This document shows, in pieces, positions 313 through 18,800 of a DNA stretch of 51,988 nt. Each line of letters begins with the position of its first letter. Position 1 is the first letter of the stretch. Source of the stretch: Oscillospiraceae bacterium (GTDB lineage Bacteria > Bacillota > Clostridia > Oscillospirales > Oscillospiraceae); the NCBI GenBank assembly GCA_017428565.1, contig JAFRQP010000036.1, forward strand, positions 1 to 51,988. The letters are read 5' to 3'. Under the pieces are notes generated by a model. The model saw only the letters and a program-made list of their open reading frames with translations, made no database searches and was not told the DNA's origin. The translations under genes were made by a program, and so were the position numbers.

Positions 313-1293
313 ATGGCAAACAATGTCCGTCCCGAGACGATGGAACGCATCACCACGCCCGAGCTGGCCCGGGCCTTTATCGACGAGCAGCTGACCGCGC
401 TGCGGGAGCAGATCGGGGACAAGAAGGTCCTCCTGGCCCTCTCCGGCGGCGTGGATTCCTCCGTGGTCGCCGCCCTGCTCATCAAGGCGGTGGGCAAGCA
501 GCTCACCTGCGTGCACGTGAACCACGGCCTGCTGCGCAAGGGCGAGCCCGAGCAGGTCATCCAGGTCTTCCGCAACGAAATGGACGCAAACCTCGTCTAT
601 GTGGACGCGGTGGACCGCTTCCTGGACAAGCTGGCCGGCGTGGCCGAGCCGGAGCAGAAGCGCAGGATCATCGGCGCCGAGTTCATCCGGGTCTTTGAGG
701 AAGAGGCCCGCAAGCTGGACGGCATCGAATTCCTGGCCCAGGGCACCATTTACCCCGACATTCTGGAGAGCGGCCCGGTGAAGGCCCACCACAACGTGGG
801 CGGCCTGCCGGAGGATCTGCGGTTTGAGCTGGTGGAGCCCCTGAAGTTCCTGTACAAGGACGAGGTGCGCGTGGTGGGTCACGAGCTGGGCCTGCCCGAC
901 AACATGGTGTATCGCCAGCCCTTCCCCGGCCCCGGCCTGGGCGTGCGCTGCGTGGGCGCCATCACCCGGGACCGGCTGGAGGCCGTGCGGGAGTCCGACG
1001 CCATCCTTCGCGAGGAGTTTGCCAAAAACGGCCTGGCCGGCAAGGTCTGGCAGTATTTCACCATCGTGCCCGACTTCAAGTCCACCGGCATCAAGGACGG
1101 GCTCCGGACCTATGACTGGCCCGTGGTCATCCGCGCCGTCAACACCCGGGACGCCGTCACCGCCACCGTGGAGGACGTGCCCTTCGCCCTGCTGCAGCAC
1201 ATCACCGCCCGCATCACCGGCGAGGTCAAGGGCGTGAACCGGGTCCTCTTCGACCTGACCCCCAAGCCCTCCGGGACCATCGAGTGGGAATAA
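313..1293 (+). CDS. guaA: GMP synthase, ATP-pyrophosphatase subunit (stand-alone)
   Basis: Activates XMP with ATP and aminates it to GMP, the last step of guanine nucleotide synthesis. The PP-loop SGGVDSS is at residues 44-50. The family sequences around the XMP site and C-terminal dimerisation domain follow (RQPFPGPGLGVR, and KPSGTIEWE at the end). At 326 aa it lacks the roughly 190-residue N-terminal glutamine amidotransferase domain of the usual bacterial enzyme, so it corresponds to the separate subunit B known mainly in archaea. The matching glutaminase is not in this window. Start ATG 313 has AGGGGG 299-304 upstream. Its last codons form the left attachment core of the adjacent mobile element, and the reading frame and stop are intact. 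Confidence 0.93.
   Translation: MANNVRPETMERITTPELARAFIDEQLTALREQIGDKKVLLALSGGVDSSVVAALLIKAVGKQLTCVHVNHGLLRKGEPEQVIQVFRNEMDANLVYVDAVDRFLDKLAGVAEPEQKRRIIGAEFIRVFEEEARKLDGIEFLAQGTIYPDILESGPVKAHHNVGGLPEDLRFELVEPLKFLYKDEVRVVGHELGLPDNMVYRQPFPGPGLGVRCVGAITRDRLEAVRESDAILREEFAKNGLAGKVWQYFTIVPDFKSTGIKDGLRTYDWPVVIRAVNTRDAVTATVEDVPFALLQHITARITGEVKGVNRVLFDLTPKPSGTIEWE
1281..1291 (+). other. attL core (left attachment site)
   Basis: CGAGTGGGAAT at the guaA 3' end is identical to 18790-18800. The flanking bases differ, which limits the visible core to 11 bp. Confidence 0.82.
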
Positions 1294-1338
1294 TTGCAGA
1301 ACCGTCTAGAAGGCGCATAAACACTAGGCTTTTTCAGC

Positions 1339-1433: not shown

Positions 1434-2354
1434 TTATTTTATTGCATTGTTTGCAAGCAAGAAGCTGTACACATCAGTTGTTTTTCCAACATATGGTGGA
1501 CACATGTTGATGCTAGTCATGTAATTCCGAATATGCCTATTTCTCTTTTCTTCTGAAGAAGGCAGTACTCTAGCCGGAATACTACCCCATCTTTTTAATA
1601 ATTCAGCTTCAACGCAAGATTTTTCTGCTGCGACAAGGTCGTAATGATTAATAATCCTTATTAGCACATCGTAGAAGCCCACAACACCGCGAAGAAATAG
1701 TTTGAGAGGGGCTCCCTGTTGGGTAGCAGCAATTTTGGGAAATTCATTTATGCCACAATCCTCTTTCGTAAAACCCTTAATTGCATTGTAGTTGCTTTCA
1801 GCTCTGTCATCAAACCGGCGATTTCCATGCGCACAGCAATTTCTGCAACTTTTGAAATACTTATATACAAGTCTGAGGTTGTTAATATATGCATCTTGTT
1901 TTTGGCTTGAATAGTGAAAGCACCCAGATAGAGAAGAGGTGTTCTCTGCAGCTAATACTCTTTCAAAAGAAGAAAAATCTCCTTTTTTCAGATCCTCTTT
2001 TATCTTCTTTTTTTGCGTGTTTGATTGGTTAAGTAATGATGAATCAACGAGGGAATCCACCCACGAATCAAAGATTGCTAATGCATTAATCAAAAGCAGT
2101 TCCGCAATAAATTGTTCCTGGTATTCCCACGACAACTCGTTTGCAATTCTCTTTGGATTTAGTCCGTGTATATCCAATCCACTAACTAACGCATTCTTTA
2201 CTTCTATGTTGTTTGCATCAGGATGCTCAATGAAGTATTTCTTAGCATCTTGCCTAAGGTTCCATAGTCCTGCATCAAGAGCCCATACCATATCAAAAGT
2301 AGCAGTTATTTGCTGAGATGCAAAATAGGTTGCTTCAAAGATAGTGTTAGACAT
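1434..2354 (-). CDS. HEPN-type protein, putative RNase or defence factor
   Basis: No named family is recognised over the full 306 aa. Residues 171-176 read R-N-C-C-A-H, which fits the RNxxxH catalytic motif of HEPN ribonucleases (as in Abi_2-type abortive-infection proteins). The motif follows a helical stretch (YKYFKSC), as is typical of the domain. There is no signal peptide or membrane segment. The gene is AT-rich compared with the chromosome and sits in the cargo position next to attL. It is transcribed toward guaA and ends at a strong terminator. The start has only a weak GAGAGGG Shine-Dalgarno about 10 nt upstream. An RNase activity, anti-phage or toxic, is an inference from the motif and location only. 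Confidence 0.6.
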   Translation of the reverse strand: MSNTIFEATYFASQQITATFDMVWALDAGLWNLRQDAKKYFIEHPDANNIEVKNALVSGLDIHGLNPKRIANELSWEYQEQFIAELLLINALAIFDSWVDSLVDSSLLNQSNTQKKKIKEDLKKGDFSSFERVLAAENTSSLSGCFHYSSQKQDAYINNLRLVYKYFKSCRNCCAHGNRRFDDRAESNYNAIKGFTKEDCGINEFPKIAATQQGAPLKLFLRGVVGFYDVLIRIINHYDLVAAEKSCVEAELLKRWGSIPARVLPSSEEKRNRHIRNYMTSINMCPPYVGKTTDVYSFLLANNAIK

Positions 2355-2401
2355 GCAGAATCAGCCCTCTCTCTTTTTGTTTTCCCTACAGCAGACCCTG
2401 A

Positions 2402-2929
2402 TTAATCCTTTAGTTTGTCCATAAAGGCTTCTATGAGGGCATCGCTTAACTCCTGAGACGGCACTTTTACCCAAAGCCGGGAACTGTCGTTTTGTGGATA
2501 GTTATAGCGCCACTTGTCATACTCTTCTTTACTGATCTCCCCGGCGCGATACTTCTCCGCGATAGGAGCCCAGGCATAGACCATTTCCGAGATGCGCGCG
2601 GCTTCTCTTCCCCTGCGGGGGTCAATACGGAAAACAACTTCTCCGTCTCTGTCCTCAATAGTCAGACCATAGCGATCCTCCAAAGCAAACAGTGTATGCA
2701 TCAAGCCAAGGTAGCTGTCAATATCGGGAATATCCAGCGCAAGCGGAGAAACCTCCAGGGCACTGGCAAGGGCTTTGGTCAGATCCTCCTTGGGCGTGCG
2801 TGTCCCGGCTTCATATTGCGCCATACGAATATCAGCGGTCTTTTCAGGAAAGCCAACCAGCGTCCCCAGATATTTCTGTGTCATGCCCCGCAGATTGCGT
2901 ATAAAGCGGATTCGTTCACCGATGGCCAT
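2402..2929 (-). CDS. XRE-family regulator of the element
   Basis: A helix-turn-helix of the Cro/C1 type occupies roughly the first 60 residues (GERIRFIRNLRGMTQKYLG and following). An uncharacterised C-terminal part contains EISKEEYDKWRYNYP. I chose the start at 2929 because AAGGGAGG stands 6 nt upstream; the frame is open 25 codons further but lacks a ribosome site there. It is divergent from xis-int. Its own promoter and the facing xis-int promoter share an operator-like sequence, so it probably represses its own transcription and that of the recombination genes, as in prophage and ICE switches. Confidence 0.8.
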   Translation of the reverse strand: MAIGERIRFIRNLRGMTQKYLGTLVGFPEKTADIRMAQYEAGTRTPKEDLTKALASALEVSPLALDIPDIDSYLGLMHTLFALEDRYGLTIEDRDGEVVFRIDPRRGREAARISEMVYAWAPIAEKYRAGEISKEEYDKWRYNYPQNDSSRLWVKVPSQELSDALIEAFMDKLKD

Positions 2930-2960
2930 AACAATTCCTCCCTTAGGTGTTCTTGCATCG

Positions 2961-2989
2961 ATTATAGCAGATGTGTTTAATGCCGTCAA
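2961..2989 (-). promoter_or_regulatory. Promoter of the XRE regulator
   Basis: On the minus strand TTGACG (2989-2984) and TATAAT (2966-2961) are separated by 17 bp, 32 bp ahead of the chosen start codon. Confidence 0.7.
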
Positions 2990-2996
2990 GAATAAC

Positions 2997-3091
2997 TTAA
3001 GCAAATTTATTTAATTATTTTCTCAGAAGCCCTTGACATAAACAAATTCCGTTAGTATAATGGCTTTTGGAAGTTAAGCAAATATGTTTAT
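2997..3091. promoter_or_regulatory. Paired XRE operators flanking divergent promoters
   Basis: Two related 18-mers beginning TTAAGCAAAT lie at 2997-3014 and 3074-3091 (15 of 18 positions identical). One lies just upstream of the minus-strand -35 and the other 12 bp downstream of the plus-strand -10. The placement is what a repressor of both promoters would need. The regulator is assumed to be the adjacent XRE protein. Confidence 0.55.
3033..3061 (+). promoter_or_regulatory. xis-int promoter
   Basis: Perfect consensus: TTGACA 3033-3038, 17-bp spacer, TATAAT 3056-3061. A 226-nt untranslated leader precedes xis. It contains one more TGACAAC (3179-3185) and no ORF I can support. Confidence 0.85.
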
Positions 3092-6513: not shown

Positions 6514-7819
6514 ATGAATGATAAAAACTACAGTGTAGCCCGCGTTGAGCAGCACACGAAGGCAAGCATCGGGAAATCCGAGCGCCATATCGAGCGCAAG
6601 AACGAGAGCTACGAAAATATGAATGTCGATCTGTCCCGGACACCAATGAATATCCACTACCAAAGCTGCGGCGATCTGACCTACAACGCCCATCTGGATA
6701 AGCTGGTGGAAGAAGGCAGCATTTCTCTTCGGGGACTGAAGAAGGATGCAAAGGTGTTCGATGAAATGATCTTCGATGTGAACACAGCCTATTTCGAGGA
6801 ACGCGGCGGCTACGAATATGCCTGCCAGTTTTATGAAGAGGCATTCCACTTCGCCCAAAAGGAATATGGCCAGGAGAACATTGTCTCCGCCGTCATGCAC
6901 GCTGACGAGCTGAACACAGCGCTGACAGAGCAGTTAGGCCATCCGGTCTGCCACTACCACATGCATGTTGTCGCGCTGCCGGTGGTTGATAAAGAAGTCC
7001 TCTGGACAAAAAGGTGCAAAGACCCGGCGCTGGTGGGAACAGTCAAAGAGGTTATCCATCAAATCAGCCTCTCCAAGAAATGGGCTTCACCGAAGATCAC
7101 GGACGAGAACGGTCACACAGATTATCAAATCCTACAGTCTGTTGCAAGACCGTTTTTTCGAGCACATGCGGGACGCCGGATTAGAGGACTTTGAGCGCGG
7201 AGAGCGCGGCAGCACAGCCCAGCACCTTTCGGTCACAGAGTTCAAGATCAAAAAGGAGGCAGAACGGCTGGATAACCTGGAAACTACCGTTGCATTCATG
7301 GAGAACAGTATCAGTTTCCTCGAAGGGCAGACAGAGGAAGCCCAAAAGAAAGCCGACAAAGCGCAGGCGCGGGTGGACAAGCTTGTCCCCAAGATGGAAC
7401 AGATCGAAGACCTGGCCCGCAAATACACCAACGATGCGGATCAGGTGCTTCCTCCGCCGGATATGCTGGAATCTGCCAAGTCGTACCGGGAGAAGAAGGC
7501 AATGCCCTTGTACCGGAAGATCGTCGGTGTGCTGCGAAATCTGTTCGACAAGTATCTGACGCTGAAACATGATTATGAAGATCTGCATCGCAAATACGAA
7601 CGGGAGATCGGCGGCGGAAATCAAATGAAAAAGACGATCAAGCGCTTGAATGAGGAAAAGGACAGCCAATCCGGGATTGTTGCCAAGTTCTACGCCCTGT
7701 GCCGCGGCTTCGGAGAAGAGTATATCGAATCCCAGGCCATGGGTATTCTGGAACGGGAGGCAATGGAACGACAGCAGAAAAAGCTCGCCCGCAAGCAGCA
7801 TGACCGGGATGCAAGGTAA
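6514..7819 (+). pseudogene. MobV-family relaxase, interrupted by a frameshift
   Basis: The relaxase would nick oriT and lead the strand into a recipient. The first 226 codons (6514-7194) include the N-terminal Pre/Mob motif (YSVARVEQH) and the catalytic histidine motif with H129-A-D-E and H147-x-H149-x-H151. The frame is lost near 7135-7150. The +1 frame then continues with sequence expected for the rest of the protein (QDRFFEHMRDAGLEDFERG and following) and a long coiled coil to the stop at 7817-7819. Removing one base near 7141-7150 restores a single frame of about 434 residues. The truncated product keeps the catalytic motif but loses the coiled-coil half. A sequencing error or programmed shift cannot be excluded; no slippery heptamer stands out. 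Confidence 0.8.
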
Positions 7820-7990: not shown

Positions 7991-9019
7991 TTAATTCGTT
8001 CTCGGCTTTGGAATATGGATTTTCCCTTTTGCCTTTCTACGGTGCGGAGGCTTCGGCTTGAAATCTCTTTGGGGCTCTTGAATATTGCGAATTTCCTTAG
8101 TTAGGCGTTCGATTTCCGGAAATTTCTTGTTGTCAATACTTTTTGCGGCCTGTACTTGGCCTAGCAAGATTTGCGCAGCATGGTCAATTTGTTTGAAATC
8201 ATTTTGCTCAGATAATTGCTTTATTCCCTGAAAGCCATTGTATATTTTTTCTTGGAGACGGTTGGGAACCTCCAATTCATGGTCGGAAGTAACAATCGTT
8301 CCCGTAATAGGCTTTGGCTTTTCTTTCGCAAAAAATACGACTTTCTTGTACTTCGGTTTGTGCCCATATCTTCTTAAGATGATATCTATTTCACGTGAGA
8401 GTTTTTCCTGAGGGAATGGGTCTTTACTGGAAAAAGTCATGTCATCAACATATAGTGTAAAGATGCACCCATATGATTCGGCACAAGCTTGGATTTGCTT
8501 GAACATATCCTCATAAGCATAGTACGCGATCAATTGGCTTGTCGGGCACCCTGTAGGTATTCCGCCTTTATACGTAACAATGTCTGTAAGGATCTTAGCA
8601 ACATCCGGGGCTGTTTGCATCTTGTCCAGAAAGAAGCGATAGACATATTCACGCCTACAATTATCATAGAATTTTTTTATATCCATCGTAAGCACATAGG
8701 CGGAACCGATATGGGCTTTCCCATTATCTATATAACATTTCCCTTTTTCGCCAGAAATGAGCCATTCTGGTCTCTCTATGCGCTGGATAAGCGTGAGAAT
8801 TCGTGCCTGGACTGCCTTTATAGTTCTTTTTGGTGCGGTTATAGTTCTCTTCTCAGATGAGTCCTTTTTGTCAATCTCAAATGAACTATATTTAATGGCA
8901 GATTGTATATTCCGCAAGTCTCCTTGCTCAATTGCAAGTATTGACTCTAGTTTCTTTCGTGAGCGACACTTATATAGAGCGCATTGGTCTAGCGGATATT
9001 TTTGCTTATTCGCTTTCAT
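7991..9019 (-). CDS. Retron-type reverse transcriptase
   Basis: A 342-aa RNA-directed DNA polymerase. Motifs are NGKAH at 99-103, in the place of the retron NAXXH signature and ten residues before the catalytic Asp113 (TMDIKKFY); GIPTGCPTSQ at 153-162; the active-site YVDD at 190-193; and PITG at 237-240, corresponding to the retron VTG motif. There is no maturase (X/En) domain, so it is not a group II intron protein. The tail is basic (PPHRRKAKGK). It overlaps the preceding XRE gene by 14 nt and shares its promoter. Upstream lies a structured non-coding region closed by a long-range inverted repeat, as expected for msr-msd RNA. Retrons act mostly in anti-phage defence. Confidence 0.85.
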   Translation of the reverse strand: MKANKQKYPLDQCALYKCRSRKKLESILAIEQGDLRNIQSAIKYSSFEIDKKDSSEKRTITAPKRTIKAVQARILTLIQRIERPEWLISGEKGKCYIDNGKAHIGSAYVLTMDIKKFYDNCRREYVYRFFLDKMQTAPDVAKILTDIVTYKGGIPTGCPTSQLIAYYAYEDMFKQIQACAESYGCIFTLYVDDMTFSSKDPFPQEKLSREIDIILRRYGHKPKYKKVVFFAKEKPKPITGTIVTSDHELEVPNRLQEKIYNGFQGIKQLSEQNDFKQIDHAAQILLGQVQAAKSIDNKKFPEIERLTKEIRNIQEPQRDFKPKPPHRRKAKGKIHIPKPRTN

Positions 9020-9323
9020 ACCGCTCTCCCGGTGCTTTTGACATTCCGGTTATCAAAGATATCATCATGGTACGAATCAGGGCCGCACCTTTCCCATCTT
9101 TTTCTGCCTCTTCATAAGATTCCGACAGGAGAATCAAAGAAGACAGCTTAATGCCAAAAATCTCTGCATACTTTCTTAAATGTTCAAGAGAAGGCTGTTT
9201 TTTGCCATTTTCTATTTCCGATAAATAGCTTGGAGAAATATTGAGCATTTTGGACATTTCGGAGGCCTTATAACCATATATCACACGCAGCCGTTTTAGA
9301 ACATCCCCAATCAACACAAGCAC
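9006..9323 (-). CDS. XRE-family protein partnered with the reverse transcriptase
   Basis: A 105-aa protein with a clear Cro/C1 helix-turn-helix (YKASEMSKMLNISPSYLSEIENGKKQPSL at about 18-46) and a short helical tail (SESYEEAEKDGKG). It is the first gene of a two-gene minus-strand operon and overlaps the reverse transcriptase start by 14 nt, so the two are probably coupled. Retrons with a small HTH partner have been described (type VI in one published classification, from memory). The protein could be the effector, or it could repress the operon promoter, where a dyad at 9867-9893 abuts the -35 box. Confidence 0.8.
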   Translation of the reverse strand: MLVLIGDVLKRLRVIYGYKASEMSKMLNISPSYLSEIENGKKQPSLEHLRKYAEIFGIKLSSLILLSESYEEAEKDGKGAALIRTMMISLITGMSKAPGERYESE

Positions 9324-9360
9324 CTCCCACTAGAACACGCAACATGCACGATATAAAAGG

Positions 9361-9662
9361 GGATTAGGCGGGTTTCCTCTTCCGTGCCCACCACATCACC
9401 AATGGAAAATCTCGCGTAGCTGCTGGATAATCTGCATGATCATCCAGGCTGCCTCAATCAGCTTAAAACCGATTAGAAAAATCGATTTCCTCCAGTTCGG
9501 AGCACTCATAGATTTTCCAGAATGATTGTGGTTTGCCGAGGGTTTCCTGTGCGAGCAGTGATTTCTTTTTGACATTTGTCGTCTCCATTTCTCAAAGCCC
9601 AAGTATAGTGAAGGGCTTCGTCCCGGAGAAATGGTTGGTGCACACAGGAACCCGCCTAATCA
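9361..9662 (-). ncRNA. Candidate retron msr-msd RNA
   Basis: On the minus strand the ends of this 302-nt segment pair: GATTAGGCGGGTT at the 5' end (near 9661-9649) with AACCCGCCTAATC at the 3' end (near 9374-9362), continuing with a one-base bulge and CC/GG. This is the a1/a2 arrangement of retron RNAs. Inside, a hairpin has outer arms 9585-9593/9626-9634 and inner arms 9595-9600/9613-9618. It lies on the same transcript as, and directly upstream of, the XRE and RT genes. The exact msr/msd borders and branching G cannot be assigned by eye, and 300 nt is long for the class. Confidence 0.5.
9396..9575 (-). CDS. Possible 59-aa small protein inside the candidate retron RNA
   Basis: The ORF starts at ATG 9575 with GGAG 7 nt upstream. 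The product has a His/Ser-rich polar N-terminus (RNHCSHRKPSANHNHSG) and a hydrophobic C-terminal stretch (IFLIGFKLIEAAWMIMQII), which could be an amphipathic helix or a membrane segment. It may be a chance ORF in structured RNA or a small toxin-like partner. No homologue is recognised. Confidence 0.25.
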   Translation of the reverse strand: MSKRNHCSHRKPSANHNHSGKSMSAPNWRKSIFLIGFKLIEAAWMIMQIIQQLREIFHW

Positions 9663-9681
9663 TTTCGCACCTGCCCAAGCT

Positions 9682-9710
9682 TCCCGGCTTGGGCGGGTGC
9701 GGGCGACGGC
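9682..9710 (-). other. Strong hairpin in the 5' part of the retron-operon transcript
   Basis: Around 9670-9701 the minus strand folds as GCACC-c-GCCCAAGC, a 6-nt loop, then GCTTGGGC-a-GGTGC. The rest of 9663-9830 contains smaller dyads but no gene. Confidence 0.5.
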
Positions 9711-9835
9711 TTGTCGGTCGGTCAGGCCACATGCCGCCCCGCTAAACAGAACACCGTTAAGATGTTCCACGAGCAGAGACCTGCTCCAGATTAGGGGACA
9801 AGACCAGCAGAAAGCTCTGCGATCACTGTGCCTGT

Positions 9836-9893
9836 AGTATAGCAAATTCAAATCTCACTGTCAAGATGAAAATTCGCTATTTGCGAATTTTCA
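9836..9893 (-). promoter_or_regulatory. Promoter and operator-like dyad of the retron operon
   Basis: On the minus strand TTGACA (9864-9859) and TATACT (9841-9836) are 17 bp apart, so transcription should begin near 9829 and run leftward for about 500 nt before the XRE start. Just upstream of the -35 is an 11-bp perfect dyad TGAAAATTCGC/GCGAATTTTCA (9867-9877/9883-9893), a likely regulator site. Confidence 0.75.
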
Positions 9894-9982
9894 TACAATG
9901 CAATCTCCCCAAGTGCTCATGGACTACAAGAAACAACTAGATTATTGATTCTATTGAGGCTACTTGCCTTTCAATTCTCTTC

Positions 9983-10042: not shown

Positions 10043-10080
10043 TCAGAGAAAGAAAACACACCTCTTTTGTGGAGGAAGCT

Positions 10081-10734
10081 ATGCAAACAACGATCCTGCT
10101 TGTCGAGGACGACGCCGTTTTGCGCCGGGGGCTCGCGGAGCTGTTTGCCCGCGAGGGCTACCAGGTGATCGAGGCCGCATCCGTGCGCGAGGCAAAGGAC
10201 AAACTGAATAGCGAAGTGCAGGCCGTAGTGCTGGACGTTGGCCTCCCGGACGGCGACGGGGTCACGCTCTGCCGCGCATGGCGGGAGGCCGGAGAGCAGA
10301 GGCCGATCCTGTTCCTCACGGCAAAGGACGAGGAGCTGGACGTGGTACGCGCGCTGGACTCCGGCGGAAACGACTATGTGACCAAGCCCTTTCGGATGCA
10401 GGAGCTGCTTTCCCGCGTCCGTGTCCTTTTGCGCAGCGCAAAGCCTCAGACTGTTCAGCGCGACAGCTTTACCGTTGACGAGAGTAAAATGCAGATCGTG
10501 AAGGACGGCGCTCCGCTGCCTTTGACGCTGACGGAATACAAGATCGTAAAAATGCTGATGGAGCGCCGGGGCGTCGTGCCGCGGAATCTACTGCTGGAAG
10601 TCCTGTGGGATGACGGTAGCAAGTTTATTGACGATAATACCTTGTCCGTTCACATGAGCCGCCTGCGCGAGAAAATCGGCGCGGAGCATATCAAGACGAT
10701 CCGGGGAGTGGGGTATCAATGGTCAGAACTGTAA
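10081..10734 (+). CDS. OmpR/PhoB-family response regulator
   Basis: A 217-aa regulator. The receiver domain has acidic residues E9, D10 and D11, phosphoacceptor D52 (VVLDVGLPDGDG), the conserved Thr (FLTAKDE) and Lys (VTKPF). The winged-helix effector domain ends with RGVGYQW. ATG 10081 is taken as the start because GGAGGA lies 5 nt upstream; an in-frame GTG 12 nt earlier overlaps that ribosome site. It overlaps the kinase gene by 16 nt. It probably activates its own operon and the ABC genes through the two CTTACG dyads. It belongs to the VanR/BceR-like group typical of antimicrobial-peptide or envelope-stress modules. Confidence 0.9.
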   Translation: MQTTILLVEDDAVLRRGLAELFAREGYQVIEAASVREAKDKLNSEVQAVVLDVGLPDGDGVTLCRAWREAGEQRPILFLTAKDEELDVVRALDSGGNDYVTKPFRMQELLSRVRVLLRSAKPQTVQRDSFTVDESKMQIVKDGAPLPLTLTEYKIVKMLMERRGVVPRNLLLEVLWDDGSKFIDDNTLSVHMSRLREKIGAEHIKTIRGVGYQWSEL

Positions 10735-11597
10735 TTGCGGCTGTCCTCCTGCTTGTCGGCATCGTGCTGGCCGTGAAGCTACTGCTTCAAAGGAAGCGCC
10801 TGCGGGACTTGGCTGAATCTATGGAGGACTATTTGAGCCGGGGCGGTGAGCCTGCCCCGTTTTCTCTCCGCGAGGACACGGTCGCTCCCGTGGAGAACGC
10901 TGCCTCGGAGCTGGAAAACCGAATCGCCGTGCTGACGGAACGGCTGCGGGAGGAAAACGAGCGCACCAGCTCCCTCACGGCGGACATTTCCCATCAGCTC
11001 AAGACGCCGCTTGCCTCTCTGCGCCTGTTCGTGGAAATGGACGAGAGCGCGCACATGAGCGAAGAGCTCGGCCAGATCGAGCGCATGGAAAAGCTGATCG
11101 GCAGCCTCCTGCGGCTGGAAAAGCTCTGTGCCGACGGGTATGAGTTTACCTTTTCCGAGCAAGCGGTACGGCCTCTGATCGAAAACGCATGGGAGAGCCT
11201 GCACGCGCTGTGGCCGGATAAGCATCTGGAGATCGAGGGCGACGCCTCCCTCCGTTGTGACGGCAAATGGCTGGGAGAGGCGCTTCAAAATCTGCTGAAA
11301 AACGCCTGCGAACACACCGCTGCGGATGGCTGTATTTGGGTTAAGATCGAGCAGACGGAGCACACGGTTTATTGCTCCGTCGAGGATAACGGCGGCGGGG
11401 TACGGGAGAAAGACCTGCCGCACCTGTTCGAGCGCTTCTATCGCTCGGAGGATCAGGCGCAAAGCGGCTCCGGCCTGGGGCTTGCTATCGTAAAAGAGAT
11501 CGCGGTCCGCCACCACGGACACGTCAGCGCCGAGAACACAAAAAAAGGTCTGCGGATCAATTTGGAGCTTCCGATCCTCAACCTTACGAAAACGTAA
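10719..11597 (+). CDS. Sensor histidine kinase with minimal input domain
   Basis: A 292-aa kinase with one N-terminal membrane segment (about 4-23), then a coiled linker. The H-box is DISHQLKTPLASL (H92), the N-box LLKNACEHT, the G1 box VEDNGGGV and the G2 box GSGLGLAIVKEI. It has no extracellular sensor domain, which fits kinases that sense through a partner ABC transporter (as in Bce-type systems). The start overlaps the response regulator end. The stop codon lies inside the second CTTACG dyad, so the ABC promoter begins right at the end of this gene. Confidence 0.9.
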   Translation: MVRTVIAAVLLLVGIVLAVKLLLQRKRLRDLAESMEDYLSRGGEPAPFSLREDTVAPVENAASELENRIAVLTERLREENERTSSLTADISHQLKTPLASLRLFVEMDESAHMSEELGQIERMEKLIGSLLRLEKLCADGYEFTFSEQAVRPLIENAWESLHALWPDKHLEIEGDASLRCDGKWLGEALQNLLKNACEHTAADGCIWVKIEQTEHTVYCSVEDNGGGVREKDLPHLFERFYRSEDQAQSGSGLGLAIVKEIAVRHHGHVSAENTKKGLRINLELPILNLTKT

Positions 11598-11636
11598 GCT
11601 AAAAGTCACCGAAAAGTAAGATTGACCTTGTATGAT
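11583..11636 (+). promoter_or_regulatory. Activator-type promoter of the ABC operon
   Basis: CTTACG 11583-11588 and CGTAAG 11593-11598 match the dyad at 9983-9998, followed by GTAAGATTG at 11616-11624 (also seen after the first dyad). A -10-like TATGAT is at 11631-11636. No good -35 exists at the right distance, as expected if the response regulator recruits polymerase. Confidence 0.6.
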
Positions 11637-11638
11637 AC

Positions 11639-11783
11639 AGCCAAAGGGCAAAAAGCTCTTTGGCTATATTCATACGAACAAAATCGAAGCCCAACGAAGT
11701 GGGTTCGATTTTGAAAGGAAAAACAAGGCAGGCGGTCGATGTGACGGCGCCTGCGGCGGCACATGACCTCGCTGCCTTGTTTT
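11639..11783 (+). other. Three-hairpin leader of the ABC operon
   Basis: Three stem-loops fill the leader. Their arms are 11639-11646/11658-11665 (8 bp), 11680-11693/11700-11712 (13 paired bases, one bulge) and 11720-11731/11772-11783 (12-bp perfect outer arms with more pairing inside). The last ends 17 bp before the start codon of the ATPase, just ahead of its GGAGGG site. None has a clear U-run for termination, so translational control or mRNA stability is more likely. Confidence 0.55.
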
Positions 11784-11800
11784 GACGCTGGAGGGATGAT

Positions 11801-12487
11801 ATGAACATTATCAGTTGCGAAAATCTAACCAAGACCTACGGCAGCGCTGCCGCGCCTGTTCACGCCCTGCAGGACGTGAGCCTCGCCTTTGAGCAGGGCT
11901 CCTTTACGGCGATCACCGGCAAATCCGGCAGCGGCAAATCCACGCTCCTGCATTTGCTCAGCGGACTGGACAGGCCGACAAGCGGACAGGTCATCTACCA
12001 GGGGAAGAATCTCTTTTCCTACAACGACAATCAGCTTTCGGTGCTGCGCCGCAGGCGCTTCGGTTTTGTGTTCCAGAGCTATAACCTTGTGCGCGAGCTG
12101 ACGGCGCAGGAAAACATCCTGCTGCCCGTGATGCTGGACGGGCGCAAGCCGGACGAGCAGCACATCGGCCACTTGATCGAGCTGCTGGGCATAGAGGATC
12201 GTCTTTCTCATCTGCCCGGCGCCATGAGCGGCGGCCAGCAGCAGCGGGTATGCATCGCCCGCGCTCTCTCAAACAAGCCCGCGATCCTCTTCGCGGACGA
12301 GCCGACCGGAAATCTGGACGGCAAAACCGGGCGCGAGGTGCTGTCCCTCATGCGCACCGTGGGCAAGGAGCTGGGGATCACGCTCATCATGGTCACGCAT
12401 GATCTCGGCGTGGCGGAGCAGGCCGAGCGCGTGATCCGTCTGGAGGACGGCCATGTAGCCGAGGACAGCGGGGCGGTGAGCGTATGA
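11801..12487 (+). CDS. ABC transporter ATP-binding protein (MacB/LolD/BceA type)
   Basis: A 228-aa ATPase with Walker A GKSGSGKST (40-48), Q-loop VFQSYNLV, signature MSGGQQQRV, Walker B ILFADEPTGNLD and H-loop VTHD. DEPTGNLD is typical of the MacB/LolD/FtsE group that works with FtsX-type permeases. It overlaps the permease start by 4 nt (ATGA), which implies a complex made in stoichiometric balance. With the two-component pair upstream, the set resembles antimicrobial-peptide or envelope-stress modules. Substrate unknown. Confidence 0.92.
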   Translation: MNIISCENLTKTYGSAAAPVHALQDVSLAFEQGSFTAITGKSGSGKSTLLHLLSGLDRPTSGQVIYQGKNLFSYNDNQLSVLRRRRFGFVFQSYNLVRELTAQENILLPVMLDGRKPDEQHIGHLIELLGIEDRLSHLPGAMSGGQQQRVCIARALSNKPAILFADEPTGNLDGKTGREVLSLMRTVGKELGITLIMVTHDLGVAEQAERVIRLEDGHVAEDSGAVSV

Positions 12488-15249
12488 AGCGGCTCAGCAT
12501 CAACCACATTTCCGCCGCCTCGATCCGCGCCAACCGCAAGACCTATTTGAGCCTTGCCGCCGGGATCGTGCTGGCGGTGCTGCTGGCGACGGTCATGACG
12601 CTCTGCGCTTTTGGAATCATTGAAGCCCGTGAGCAGCAGATCGTGCAGACCGTGGGTTATACCGACTGTATTTTGCTGGACGAGCCGGACATTACAGACG
12701 AATCGCTGCGACAGAGCGGCTTGTTTGACCGGATCGGGCATCAGTTCGTCGCCGCCTCGGTTACGGACAGCACTGTATATCTGGGCTGGCTGGATGAGGC
12801 GGGACAGGACATTGTCTGCCGCGCCCTGGCCGAAGGGCGTATGCCCGAGCACAGCGGAGAGATCGCCATCGAGCGCAGCGCGTTGGAAAAGCTGCGGCTG
12901 GAAGCGGAAGTGGGCGACACGGTGACCTGGACGTTGCTGCCCATAGACGGCGTGCCGGAAGAACATTGCTTTACCATCGTGGGTATACTCAAGGAACAGT
13001 CCGGAGCACTGGACGTGAGCGGTTTTGCATGGTCAGCCAGCGGCGTCCTTAACTGGCCTTCGGCCCTCATTTCTTCTGAAGAATCGTTTGCAACCGGGCG
13101 TGTTGCAGCGCATCGGGTGATGACCTACGCCCCGTTTACGTCTCTTTCCCAAGTGGAGAAGAGATATAGCTATGGTCTCTTTTTCGGTGTCAGCCGCACT
13201 CAAGGCGCGGCTCAACCCACCGATCCCGCGGAGATGGACGCGGCCGGCTATGCGGATATGATAGCCATGCTGCTGATCCTCGGCCTCGCTTTGCTGTTGG
13301 CTGTCTGTATTGGAATCTCCTCGGCGATGGAGGGCGTGTTAGCTTCCAAGACAGAAGAGATCGGGATGCTGCGGGCTGTCGGTGCGACGAAACGGCAGAT
13401 CCGGCGTATTTTCGGGCGCGACGCCTGGCTTCTGAGCCTCATTGCGCTTCCGATTGGCTTGCTGTTCGGGCTCGTGCTTACTTGGCTCCTTTGCCGTATG
13501 GCTCCCGGTGAAATGATCTTTGCGCCGTACCTTTGGCTGCTATTTCCGATCCTGCTGATTTCGGCGCTGTGCATTGTAATTGCGTCCGGGTTGCCCCTGC
13601 GCCGGGCGTCCAAACAAATGCCTATGGGCGTACTGCGTGACACGGCGCTTTTGCGCAAGGCTGGCAGCTTCAAAAGTAAACGCAGCTTCCATGCCACGGA
13701 ATTGATCGCCGCACGGCAATTACGAATCCACCCCTGGCGGCAGATCGGCGCCGCGCTGCTGGTAGCGGCCACGCTGCTCTGTGCCGCGATCATTGGAGAA
13801 CAGAGCTATGACGCCGTCTCGGAGTTTGCCCGCAGTAAGCCGGTGGCTTTCTCTCTGACGAACCAAAAAGCGACCTTTTCCAACACTCCCTTTTCCGTGG
13901 TGCGCCCGGAAAACCAGCTCTCCGAGCAGGATGTGGCGCAGATCCGCGGTCTGCCGCTCGTGGACTATGCCAGTCTGGAAGCACAGACAAAAGTCAATTT
14001 GATTCTCTATGACGAAGTTCCGGATTACTTCCTGCCCTTTACCGGAGGAACGCTCGGCCAAGGGACAGACGGAGAAAACACCTGGGTCTACAACATCTTC
14101 GGCGGGGGCAGCGGTCTGAATTATCTCAGCATTTCACCGGACGACCCGGAGCCGCCGACTCTCGGCGAGGACGCCAGCACGACAGAGCGGCAGCAGAGCA
14201 GAGCATGGGAACAATATCGTCAGATGCGCGCCCTCATGGAAGCCCAGGGGCTGGCGGGAAAGCCCGTACACTTCACGTTCTATGTCACAGATTTGAGCCG
14301 GGTGGACTTCACCGACCGGATCGCCGAGGGCAAGGTCGATCTGGCCGCTATCGACGCCGGGCAGCAGGTGCTGGTCTACGCGCCAACCTATCATATTTTT
14401 CGTTTGGAGGACGGCATGCGCATCGCCGCAGCCTTGGATGCCTGGGGTCGCGCGGCATCGGAAGCGGAATTTGAAAACGACTTTTTCCACGCGGGCCAGA
14501 CGCTGGAGCTGGTACAGTTTGTACAGGAGCACCTGTTTGACGATGTGAGCGACGAGGCTTTGCGCGCCCAGTTTGCGCAGTTGACACGGCACGACGCCAC
14601 GGTCACCGTCGGCGCTGTTTTGAACGGCAAGCCGATCCGAGACAGCGAAGTTTGCATCTTGACCACAGAAGCGGGTGCAAAGGCGCTGGGCTTTGAAATG
14701 ACAGAGATCACCGGTATGGAGATCTCTCTGACACAGGATATTGATCTGGAGACGGAACAGGCGCTGGAAAAGCGCCTGGAGCGGATCGCCATGCGCGGCG
14801 ATATGACGCTCTTTAACTGGCTGCAGAGCTGGCGGGACGAGGTCGCCTCCATCCGCTCCTCCATGGGTCTGCTTGCGGCCCTGTTGCTGCTCTTCTTCAC
14901 CTTGGCCGTCGCCATGCAGGTGGGCAACGCCGGGCGGCGCATCCGCGCGGACGCCCGTATGATCGGTACGCTCCGTGCCGTGGGTGCGGACGAGAAAGCG
15001 CTGCTGGGCTGCTACCGTCTGCCGCTGTTGCTGACCACTGGCATCGGTGCGGCGCTTGGCGCGGGTGCCTACATCGCCATTGCGATTTGGTATCATGTCC
15101 AGACAGGCGAGCACATGCACACGATCCCTGTCCTGGCCGCCATGCTGATCCTTGCCGCGCTTTGCGCTCTGTGCTGCCTGGCCGGGCTGCGGATGAGGCT
15201 GAAAAGCGTGCTGGATCAGAGTATCGTTGAGAACATTCGGGAGCTGTGA
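12484..15249 (+). CDS. FtsX-type ABC transporter permease
   Basis: A 921-aa protein with an N-terminal membrane segment (about 20-45) and a roughly 200-residue extracytoplasmic domain. A first FtsX block follows with three segments (ADMIAMLLILGLALLLAVCIG, WLLSLIALPIGLLFGLVL, LWLLFPILLISALCIVIA). A fifth segment near 420 is followed by a second large external domain of about 350 residues, and a final FtsX block has three more segments. The EEIGMLRAVGATKRQI and ARMIGTLRAVGADEKAL motifs are the cytoplasmic coupling helices of FtsX permeases and occur twice, as expected. The size and two external domains fit BceB/MacB-like exporters or mechanotransmitters. Confidence 0.9.
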   Translation: MKRLSINHISAASIRANRKTYLSLAAGIVLAVLLATVMTLCAFGIIEAREQQIVQTVGYTDCILLDEPDITDESLRQSGLFDRIGHQFVAASVTDSTVYLGWLDEAGQDIVCRALAEGRMPEHSGEIAIERSALEKLRLEAEVGDTVTWTLLPIDGVPEEHCFTIVGILKEQSGALDVSGFAWSASGVLNWPSALISSEESFATGRVAAHRVMTYAPFTSLSQVEKRYSYGLFFGVSRTQGAAQPTDPAEMDAAGYADMIAMLLILGLALLLAVCIGISSAMEGVLASKTEEIGMLRAVGATKRQIRRIFGRDAWLLSLIALPIGLLFGLVLTWLLCRMAPGEMIFAPYLWLLFPILLISALCIVIASGLPLRRASKQMPMGVLRDTALLRKAGSFKSKRSFHATELIAARQLRIHPWRQIGAALLVAATLLCAAIIGEQSYDAVSEFARSKPVAFSLTNQKATFSNTPFSVVRPENQLSEQDVAQIRGLPLVDYASLEAQTKVNLILYDEVPDYFLPFTGGTLGQGTDGENTWVYNIFGGGSGLNYLSISPDDPEPPTLGEDASTTERQQSRAWEQYRQMRALMEAQGLAGKPVHFTFYVTDLSRVDFTDRIAEGKVDLAAIDAGQQVLVYAPTYHIFRLEDGMRIAAALDAWGRAASEAEFENDFFHAGQTLELVQFVQEHLFDDVSDEALRAQFAQLTRHDATVTVGAVLNGKPIRDSEVCILTTEAGAKALGFEMTEITGMEISLTQDIDLETEQALEKRLERIAMRGDMTLFNWLQSWRDEVASIRSSMGLLAALLLLFFTLAVAMQVGNAGRRIRADARMIGTLRAVGADEKALLGCYRLPLLLTTGIGAALGAGAYIAIAIWYHVQTGEHMHTIPVLAAMLILAALCALCCLAGLRMRLKSVLDQSIVENIREL

Positions 15250-18789: not shown

Positions 18790-18800
18790 CGAGTGGGAAT
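18790..18800 (+). other. attR core (right attachment site)
   Basis: CGAGTGGGAAT is identical to the end of guaA. It is followed by chromosomal sequence and, 24 bp later, a terminator that would suit guaA before insertion. Confidence 0.82.

What the first reader, a model, noticed from the sequence alone, without database searches (positions are those of the whole stretch)
7991..9893. Retron-like defence locus on a guaA-integrated mobilizable element
The reverse transcriptase carries NGKAH (retron NAXXH position), YVDD and PITG (VTG-like). It is co-transcribed with a small XRE protein from a consensus promoter behind about 500 nt of structured non-coding DNA. The partner protein and the RT form (GIPTGCPTSQ, YVDD) are unlike the well-studied Ec86-type retrons. 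It could be a little-studied or new retron subtype, carried as transferable cargo.
Basis: partly seen in the sequence, partly recalled or inferred. Interest (0 to 1): 0.82.

Follow-up and report, generated by a model that had tools for sequence, protein, structure and literature searches.

The report
Type VI retron hiding a mini-protein
This is a known class of bacterial retron (type VI), and inside its supposedly non-coding RNA lies a conserved gene for a tiny, probably membrane-seeking protein that may be the system's missing killer component, sitting in the stretch of RNA that the reverse transcriptase would be expected to copy into DNA.

Summary
The locus is a type VI retron, not a new subtype: the RT scores 308 bits against PADLOC RT_VI (next model 141), the XRE protein 97 bits against HTH_VI, and 20 type VI rows form one clade. 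The upstream RNA is strongly structured but not all non-coding. Inside it, on the RT strand, lies a 59-codon ORF (9396-9575) with a Shine-Dalgarno, a basic N-terminus and a hydrophobic C-terminus. Such an ORF was found in 64 of 78 non-duplicate loci from several phyla (reverse strand 3 of 78; shuffles 74 of 1560). Three groups show an excess of synonymous changes in its frame, one does not. It lies inside a long a1/a2-like inverted repeat, and in two far-diverged clades the RNA structure around and within it covaries. Pfam gives no hit above cut-off, PADLOC none. Best reading: this mini-protein is the type VI effector and its message overlaps the RT's template, so reverse transcription could silence it. 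Toxicity, msDNA and defence are untested here. The founding classification paper was not readable, so priority is unverified.

The parts
7991..9019 (-). Retron reverse transcriptase, type VI, 342 aa (NGKAH, YVDD, ITG)
9006..9323 (-). Small XRE/Cro-type HTH protein (HTH_VI). The likely true start is TTG 9312-9314 behind GGGAGG, judged from homologues that start at M-I-G
9396..9575 (-). Conserved small ORF, 59 codons plus stop: basic N-terminus, hydrophobic C-terminal stretch; candidate effector (toxin)
   Evidence: (E 1.5e-13 to an HMM of six homologues)
9583..9586 (-). Shine-Dalgarno GGAG of the small ORF, 7 nt before its ATG
9649..9661 (-). 5' arm of the outer long-range stem (a1-like), GATTAGGCGGGTT; its last two bases could pair in either the outer stem or stem II
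9362..9374 (-). 3' arm of the outer stem (a2-like), AACCCGCCTAATC
9640..9650 (-). 5' arm of stem II; stem II encloses the SD and start codon of the small ORF
9544..9552 (-). 3' arm of stem II, inside the first codons of the small ORF
9510..9531 (-). 5' arm of the msd-like hairpin, inside the small ORF
   Evidence: (core 9510-9519); the longer arm was read by eye
9391..9412 (-). 3' arm of the msd-like hairpin, covering the last codons and stop of the small ORF
   Evidence: (core 9403-9412); the longer arm was read by eye
9666..9701 (-). GC-rich hairpin just 5' of a1
9750..9787 (-). Two conserved hairpins of the 5' domain (GGAACAUC..GGUGUUC and GGAGCAG..CUGCUC)
   Evidence: window coordinates read by eye
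9836..9864 (-). Promoter TTGACA-17-TATACT; transcript start expected near 9829
9866..9894 (-). Palindrome ATGAAAATTCGC-N5-GCGAATTTTCAT directly upstream of the -35, core TCGC-N5-GCGA: probable operator of the HTH protein

Best explanation
The locus is a type VI retron. One transcript, started at a promoter next to a palindromic operator, carries in order: a 5' multi-hairpin domain, an a1-like arm, an msr-like part that holds the ribosome-binding site and start codon of a small ORF, an msd-like hairpin made largely of the rest of that ORF, an a2-like arm, the XRE gene and the RT gene. The small ORF makes a mini-protein of roughly 40-70 aa, basic at the N-terminus and hydrophobic or amphipathic at the C-terminus, which I infer to be the effector: a membrane-active toxin. 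In an uninfected cell the RT binds the RNA and copies the msd into DNA. Because the template would be the effector's own coding sequence, binding, copying and host RNase H would remove or block the message, so RT plus RNA act as antitoxin, while the XRE protein limits transcription of the whole unit. A phage that disturbs the RT, its DNA product or the repressor would let the mini-protein be made and the cell would stop or die. Shown here: type VI membership, the conserved coding ORF, its nesting in the conserved RNA structure, the recurring operator-like palindrome. Inferred: toxicity, membrane action, msDNA synthesis, the RT's antitoxin role, repression by the XRE protein, phage defence. My step probabilities: type VI retron 0.97; real protein-coding gene 0.95; it is the effector 0.75; its codons lie in the reverse-transcribed part 0.7; silencing by reverse transcription of its message 0.35.
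For: Type VI: RT_VI 308.1 bits, HTH_VI 97.1 bits; 10 of 10 wider relatives scanned, and own-family L007, score best with RT_VI; 20 rows labelled type VI, 12 of them scanned singly against PADLOC, form one clade, support 100/100. Small ORF: an HMM of six homologues, window not among them, finds it in the window at E 1.5e-13. Under one set of criteria it is present in 64 of 78 non-duplicate loci, 60 of 63 where an HTH start anchors the search, against 3 of 78 on the reverse strand and 74 of 1560 dinucleotide shuffles; 1 of 13 own-family retron loci outside type VI. Selection for the protein: 144 of 450 differences synonymous vs 81.4 +/- 7.6 by random placement (0 of 300 as high), the other two frames below expectation; E. 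coli prophage clade 168 of 714 vs 99.3 +/- 9.3 (0 of 500). A small hydrophobic ORF persists in a subclade without a detected XRE gene (L007, L008, L009, L103, L104). Nesting in RNA structure: in 21 loci 70 cells changed on both sides vs 20.8 +/- 4.9 shuffled, slid versions at most 16; in 8 distinct Enterobacteria/Aeromonas rows 23 vs 7.2 +/- 2.1, slid at most 4, including an msd-like hairpin (columns 416-545) built from the ORF's codons. A flanking inverted repeat beats shuffles at p <= 0.05 in 37 of 64 loci. An operator core TCGC-N-GCGA (or GCGA-N-TCGC) lies 430-720 nt upstream of the XRE start in 39 of 63 loci vs 71 of 1260 shuffles. General retron anatomy (complementary msr 5' and msd 3' ends, short msr hairpins, one long msd hairpin, template removed by host RNase H; accessory toxins neutralised by RT and RT-DNA): passages of PMC6868368 and PMC8989520.
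Against: No expression, toxicity, msDNA or phage data exist here. No priming guanosine in the usual TAGC context was seen consistently after the a1-like arm, so where reverse transcription starts is unproven. The transcript has an extra 5' structured domain, so the true msr could lie elsewhere. In the E. coli-type clade the outer (a1/a2-like) stem shows no pair changed on both sides: 9 of its 12 pairs never vary. The tested structures were predicted from the same alignments, which favours them over slid versions; in A3 the number of further pair types is only marginally above shuffles (45 vs 41.6, 39 of 500 as high). In the window the family's N-terminal motif lies in another frame than the start codon and C-terminus (the HMM match of that segment is not significant, E 4), so there it seems conserved as RNA and not as protein. 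One group shows no excess of synonymous changes (L028, L030-L032: 39 of 144 vs 36.3, 96 of 300 as high), and some pairwise dN/dS values exceed 1. 14 of 78 loci lacked an ORF under the criteria, 11 of them without a detected HTH anchor, and the criteria were set after seeing the pattern. 27 of 64 flanking-repeat tests were not significant. The co-loss evidence for toxin and antitoxin is a handful of loci.
Confidence: 0.6

Rival explanations
1. The mini-protein is the effector, but it is controlled as in other retrons: the RT-RNA-msDNA complex binds and holds the protein, and the overlap with the msd is mere genome economy.
For: Accessory toxins of other retrons are neutralised by RT and RT-DNA (passages of PMC8989520); the charged and hydrophobic pattern (25 copies) could be a binding surface; ORF and RNA structure are both conserved.
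Against: It does not explain why ORF and msd-like hairpin coincide in two far-diverged clades (RT of L139 30% identical to the window's). No complex was modelled.
Confidence: 0.25
2. The mini-protein is not a toxin but a partner of the RT, for example a membrane anchor or a sensor subunit, and the effector is the XRE protein or an unlinked host factor.
For: It is small, basic and hydrophobic in the 25 copies, and such an ORF persists where no XRE gene was detected.
Against: The XRE protein is undetected in a subclade, and a Cro/C1-type protein next to an operator-like palindrome looks like a regulator.
Confidence: 0.12
3. The ORF is a leader peptide or translational coupler that sets expression of the XRE and RT genes, not a functional protein.
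For: Its stop lies 24-108 nt upstream of the XRE or RT start in the 64 loci (range).
Against: Protein-level conservation, with codon position 2 most conserved (0.13 vs 0.29 and 0.41), a persistent hydrophobic C-terminus, and annotation as a protein of its own in E. coli prophages and a PHROG.
Confidence: 0.05
4. The long inverted repeat is not a1/a2: the small ORF is a plain type I-like toxin gene whose translation is blocked by RNA structure, and the true msr-msd is the 5' multi-hairpin domain.
For: The 5' domain has short hairpins as msr regions do; the SD lies in a small predicted hairpin (columns 337-350); no TAGC priming site is evident; the outer stem does not covary in the E. coli-type clade.
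Against: The order closing stem, short hairpins, long hairpin, closing arm matches the described retron anatomy (passages) and appears in two far-diverged clades.
Confidence: 0.2

Closest known systems
Type VI retrons (RT_VI plus HTH_VI of PADLOC-DB 2.0; the type scheme of Mestre et al. 2020 is recalled, that paper was not readable here)
   Same: Same RT family, same small XRE protein, same order XRE then RT with adjoining or overlapping ends, structured RNA upstream.
   Different: PADLOC-DB has no model that matches the small ORF (0 of 8 copies at E <= 1); the ORF inside the RNA is, as far as I could check, not part of the published definition.
Retron Eco1/Ec86 and other retrons with solved structures
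   Same: RT fold (7v9x, TM 0.70 by query length), NAXXH- and VTG-like motifs, RNA with closing stem, short hairpins and a long hairpin.
   Different: Their effector is a separate or RT-fused protein; here the only candidate effector is encoded within the RNA itself. No TAGC priming site was recognised.
DRT2 (neo) defence system
   Same: A toxic ORF hidden in a structured RNA next to a reverse transcriptase (abstract and passages of PMC12039810).
   Different: In DRT2 the ORF arises only after repeat synthesis, so the RT switches the toxin on; here the ORF is readable in the primary transcript, so the RT would switch it off. The window RT matches retron models, not DRT2 (Drt2 E 0.0016, far below cut-off).
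Type I toxin-antitoxin systems (small hydrophobic toxins under RNA control; recalled)
   Same: Tiny basic-hydrophobic protein, long structured 5' region, SD in a predicted hairpin.
   Different: A reverse transcriptase and an XRE protein are part of the unit; I did not search for an antisense RNA gene.

Membership tests
Retron (general) | RT of the retron group with NAXXH-like region X and VTG-like region Y | tested here: met
   NGKAH and ITG in the window; N, H, T, G invariant in 39 rows; first 18 PDB matches are retron RTs; apart from two group II RTs in the tree
Retron (general) | Upstream msr-msd RNA with complementary ends, short msr hairpins and one long msd hairpin | tested here: met
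   Conserved closing stem, stem II and hairpins in two clades with covariation overall; the closing stem itself covaries in A3 (6 of 12 pairs) but not in A5 (0 of 12)
Retron (general) | Priming guanosine in TAGC-like context at the inner end of a1 | tested here: inconclusive
   No consistent TAGC after the a1-like arm in the alignments, judged by eye
Retron (general) | Production of msDNA/RT-DNA | not testable with these tools
   Needs wet work
Type VI retron | RT groups with type VI RTs | tested here: met
   RT_VI 308.1 bits, next 141.3; clade of 20 at 100/100
Type VI retron | Small XRE/Cro HTH protein encoded next to the RT | tested here: met
   HTH_VI 97.1 bits; HTH adjacent in 74 of 87 loci examined, an overlapping HTH ORF in 4 more (L083, L087, L096, L102)
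Anti-phage defence system | Protects against phage | not tested
   No experiment; inferred from retrons in general
Toxin-antitoxin-like unit | Toxic partner neutralised by the RT and RNA | not testable with these tools
   Only sequence-level hints: of 89 loci checked two have a broken RT, and both lack an intact ORF (L051 premature stop, L061 none found)

The most novel reading that the evidence does not exclude
In type VI retrons the reverse transcriptase is an antitoxin that works by turning its toxin's own messenger into DNA: the msd template is the coding sequence of a membrane-active mini-protein, so continuous reverse transcription plus RNase H keeps the toxin unmade, and a phage that stalls the RT releases it. 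The same bases would be selected twice, as protein code and as msd hairpin.
Probability: 0.35. Interest if true: 0.92.

Novelty: new variant of a known kind. Interest (0 to 1): 0.72.

Why it matters
Retrons are usually described as RT, RNA and a toxic effector, yet the type VI models in PADLOC cover only an RT and a small DNA-binding protein. A conserved mini-protein gene inside the RNA would supply the missing effector and explain why it went unseen: it is short and lies in sequence filed as non-coding or as a hypothetical protein. If its codons really are the RT template, one stretch of nucleic acid would be at once toxin message and antitoxin substrate, a form of control I know from no other retron. 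It can be tested directly in laboratory E. coli with a P2-like prophage copy.

Tried and rejected
Rejected: (1) a new retron subtype, because the type VI models fit far better than any other. (2) Abi, UG or CRISPR-associated RT, because the RT scores, groups and folds with retron RTs (no Abi, UG or CRISPR RT was put in the tree). (3) A purely non-coding upstream RNA, because of the frame-specific selection. (4) The annotated Fst or Hok/Gef toxins behind the RT as partner: listed in 3 of the 14 annotated stretches that I opened (L002, L004, L140), on the other strand. (5) An Rfam family for the RNA: none at gathering threshold. (6) A right-hand attachment site: the only repeat of the guaA end is an 11-mer at 18790 that does not extend; left open.

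Led nowhere: viral-contig search with the single protein; searching the genus with a stretch from the right side; papers on type VI effectors in the held library. Searches listed none that I recognised as describing a small ORF in a type VI retron RNA; of most papers I saw listing and abstract start only, of PMC8934634, PMC12548924, PMC12262390, PMC13405049, PMC9252829, PMC6868368, PMC8989520 and PMC12039810 passages. The two papers most likely to mention it (Mestre 2020, Khan 2024) are not held, so I cannot say it is unpublished.

Rows dropped or altered before counts: one search kept the best 80 of 131 relatives; of the 31 viral loci only L105 was analysed; of 184 plasmid records five were opened. 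One search looked at 88 loci, dropped 3 with short upstream sequence (L027, L058, L088) and 7 duplicates, and used the RT start as anchor where no HTH was detected; of the 11 such loci without a hit, one search shows a small ORF of some kind in nine when read by eye, none in L077, and L061 has none. One search tested the 64 loci with an ORF. In one search, 12 of 20 type VI labels rest on single PADLOC scans and the rest on similarity; L011 and L022 are near ties between III-A and Ec107-like, L018 was labelled by similarity, the L024 row was begun 900 nt inside its ORF and the two I-C rows were cut to 340 residues. One search took 13 of the 15 non-VI loci (L017 and L024 left out), 8 of them typed; its one hit is the end of an upstream ORF. 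The 21 rows of A3 are the closer relatives, by choice; L031, whose upstream half is unlike the others, was kept.
Full report
What was checked. The region upstream folds much better than shuffled sequence (z -8.8; z -7.2 for 9355-9665).

What family it is. Against PADLOC-DB the RT scores 308.1 bits with RT_VI (next RT_III-A 141.3) and the XRE protein 97.1 bits with HTH_VI. In a maximum-likelihood tree of 32 rows, the 20 rows labelled type VI form one clade with support 100/100, apart from III-A, Ec107-like, I-C and group II rows (12 of the 20 labels rest on single PADLOC scans, the outgroup rows are long and the root is a midpoint). The predicted RT structure is confident (mean pLDDT 94.4) and the first 18 PDB matches by Foldseek are retron RTs. 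N99, H103, the YVDD block and T239-G240 are invariant in 39 rows. A scan of genome contigs gave 131 relatives, of which the best 80 were kept; an XRE gene sits next to the RT in 74 of 87 loci examined. So the locus is an ordinary type VI retron.

The hidden gene. Listing small ORFs upstream of the XRE gene showed, in locus after locus, a short ORF with a basic N-terminus and a C-terminal stretch such as FRGIEALWMLLQIVQYLLQIFK. In the window it runs from ATG 9575 to stop 9396, 59 codons, with GGAG 7 nt before the ATG. An HMM from six homologues finds it in the window at E 1.5e-13, matching positions 17-57. With fixed criteria (SD, 33-95 codons, stop within 130 nt of the next gene, hydrophobic 15-mer in the last 40 residues) 64 of 78 non-duplicate loci have it, 60 of 63 when the XRE start is the anchor; lengths found are 38-86 aa; the reverse strand gives 3 of 78 and dinucleotide shuffles 74 of 1560. 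The criteria were chosen after seeing the pattern, but the controls used the same ones. Among 13 retron loci outside type VI from the window's own taxonomic family, 1 passes, and that one is the end of an upstream ORF. In a type VI subclade without a detected XRE gene (L007, L008, L009, L103, L104) a 64-72 aa ORF with a strong hydrophobic stretch lies directly before the RT, overlapping its start in L103, so a mini-protein is kept even where the XRE gene is not seen.

Is it translated? In six close loci (L033-L036, L038, L040) 144 of 450 pairwise differences are synonymous in the ORF frame against 81.4 +/- 7.6 for random placement (0 of 300), and the other frames fall below expectation; for L025, L026 and L029 31 of 202 against 14.7 +/- 3.6 (0 of 300); for L028, L030-L032 there is no excess (39 of 144 against 36.3, 96 of 300). 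The 14 pairs of the six loci that are printed have dN/dS 0.16-0.31; other printed pairs range up to 1.7, among them very close or near-saturated pairs. In the E. coli prophage clade (7 distinct of 8 copies) it is 168 of 714 against 99.3 +/- 9.3 (0 of 500). Pairs share ancestry, so these are not independent draws. RefSeq annotates the E. coli copy as a hypothetical protein (six loci), and the L139 copy matches PHROG 15287, unknown function, while in the Staphylococcus and Aeromonas plasmid tables, which are incomplete, no gene is listed there. Of eight copies scanned, none has a Pfam hit above cut-off (best E 0.029) and none a PADLOC hit. The window copy keeps its start and C-terminus in one frame, but the family's N-terminal motif lies in another frame (HMM match of that segment E 4); the RNA pairing of that stretch is kept, so it seems held there as RNA.

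Where it lies in the RNA. In 21 aligned loci an outer stem (columns 258-270 with 610-622) encloses the ORF and a second stem (273-283 with 387-397) encloses its start; with two 5' hairpins they are paired in 94.8% of cells, with 70 cells changed on both sides against 20.8 +/- 4.9 in shuffles and at most 16 in slid versions; the number of further pair types is only marginally raised (45 against 41.6, 39 of 500). In 8 distinct rows from E. coli, a coliphage, a Klebsiella phage and an Aeromonas plasmid, whose RTs are far diverged (L139 30% identical to the window), the same layout appears: outer stem, second stem pairing with codons 9-11, hairpins holding the SD, then one long hairpin (columns 416-545) formed by the remaining codons and abutting the closing arm; 23 cells changed on both sides against 7.2 +/- 2.1, slid at most 4; here the outer stem itself has no two-sided change. 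The structures were predicted from these same alignments. A simple ungapped test finds a flanking inverted repeat at p <= 0.05 in 37 of 64 loci. In the window the arms are 9649-9661 and 9362-9374, and a long imperfect stem 9510-9531 with 9391-9412 encloses the C-terminal codons. This order fits the retron anatomy described in PMC6868368 (passages): complementary ends, short msr hairpins, one long msd hairpin. The usual TAGC priming site is not evident, and there is an additional 5' structured domain.

Regulation. A palindrome core TCGC-N-GCGA (or GCGA-N-TCGC) lies 430-720 nt upstream of the XRE start in 39 of 63 loci, against 71 of 1260 shuffles, often next to the promoter; in the window it is part of 9866-9894. 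The XRE protein probably binds it (inference).

Mechanism. Host RNase H degrades the msd template as it is copied, and accessory toxins are neutralised by RT and RT-DNA in other retrons (passages of PMC8989520). If the template is the mini-protein's message, reverse transcription would consume it. That is inference; binding or structural block are the main rivals. Natural damage fits an order in which the mini-protein is lost before or with the RT: of 89 loci checked, two have a broken RT (L051, L061), the first with a premature stop in the ORF and the second without an ORF, and L006/L027 has an intact RT with only the last part of the ORF; no locus with a broken RT and an intact ORF was seen, but the numbers are tiny.

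Context and spread. The window copy lies behind guaA with an integrase, a NikA-like protein and a MobV relaxase; alignments with same-genus genomes end at 1291-1334 in 9 of 10 stretches, so that end is an insertion site, while the other end was not found. Relatives also occur on Staphylococcus, Enterococcus and Ligilactobacillus plasmids, in P2-like phages and, for the prophage type, in 99 of 5426 E. coli genomes.

Novelty. The locus is a new member of type VI. The mini-protein inside the template-like RNA is, to my knowledge, not part of any published definition; nine library searches showed none that I recognised, but the key classification papers could not be read.

Noticed in passing
window 6514-7819 (+): The MobV relaxase reads in two frames (226-aa ORF 6514-7194, then its continuation in ORF 6965-7819): a frameshift or a sequencing error, so the element may not mobilise itself.
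   Followed up: no
window 1291-1334: Alignments with same-genus genomes break at or just behind the guaA stop codon with different DNA behind it, so the guaA 3' end looks like an insertion hotspot in this genus.
   Followed up: partly
L143 and L146 (E. coli): Two alleles share 98% of the 300 nt before the small ORF and 96% of the mini-protein but only 81% of the RT protein, as if RT and RNA parts recombine separately.
   Followed up: no
L031, upstream of about 2360: The 5' domain and a1-like arm are unlike the other rows while the small ORF and the rest stay intact: perhaps a natural replacement of the RNA's 5' half.
   Followed up: no
L006/L027 1-265: A same-family relative (Flavonifractor sp. 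An100) keeps XRE and RT but only about the last 15 codons of the small ORF; the contig starts nearby, so an assembly cause is possible.
   Followed up: partly
L002 3521-3616, L004 3052-3153, L140 2874-3026: Annotated Fst or Hok/Gef toxins lie just behind the RT on the other strand in three plasmid copies: probably plasmid maintenance.
   Followed up: no
window 10069-15249 (+): Directly beside the retron: response regulator, sensor kinase, ABC ATPase and a 921-aa permease-like protein, resembling peptide-antibiotic response modules (judged from the sequences, not scanned).
   Followed up: no
window 1434-3004 (-): A 306-aa protein without Pfam match and a second XRE-type protein lie between guaA and the integrase; the stretch 1127-2690 recurs at 84% identity in a same-genus genome (L173).
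   Followed up: partly
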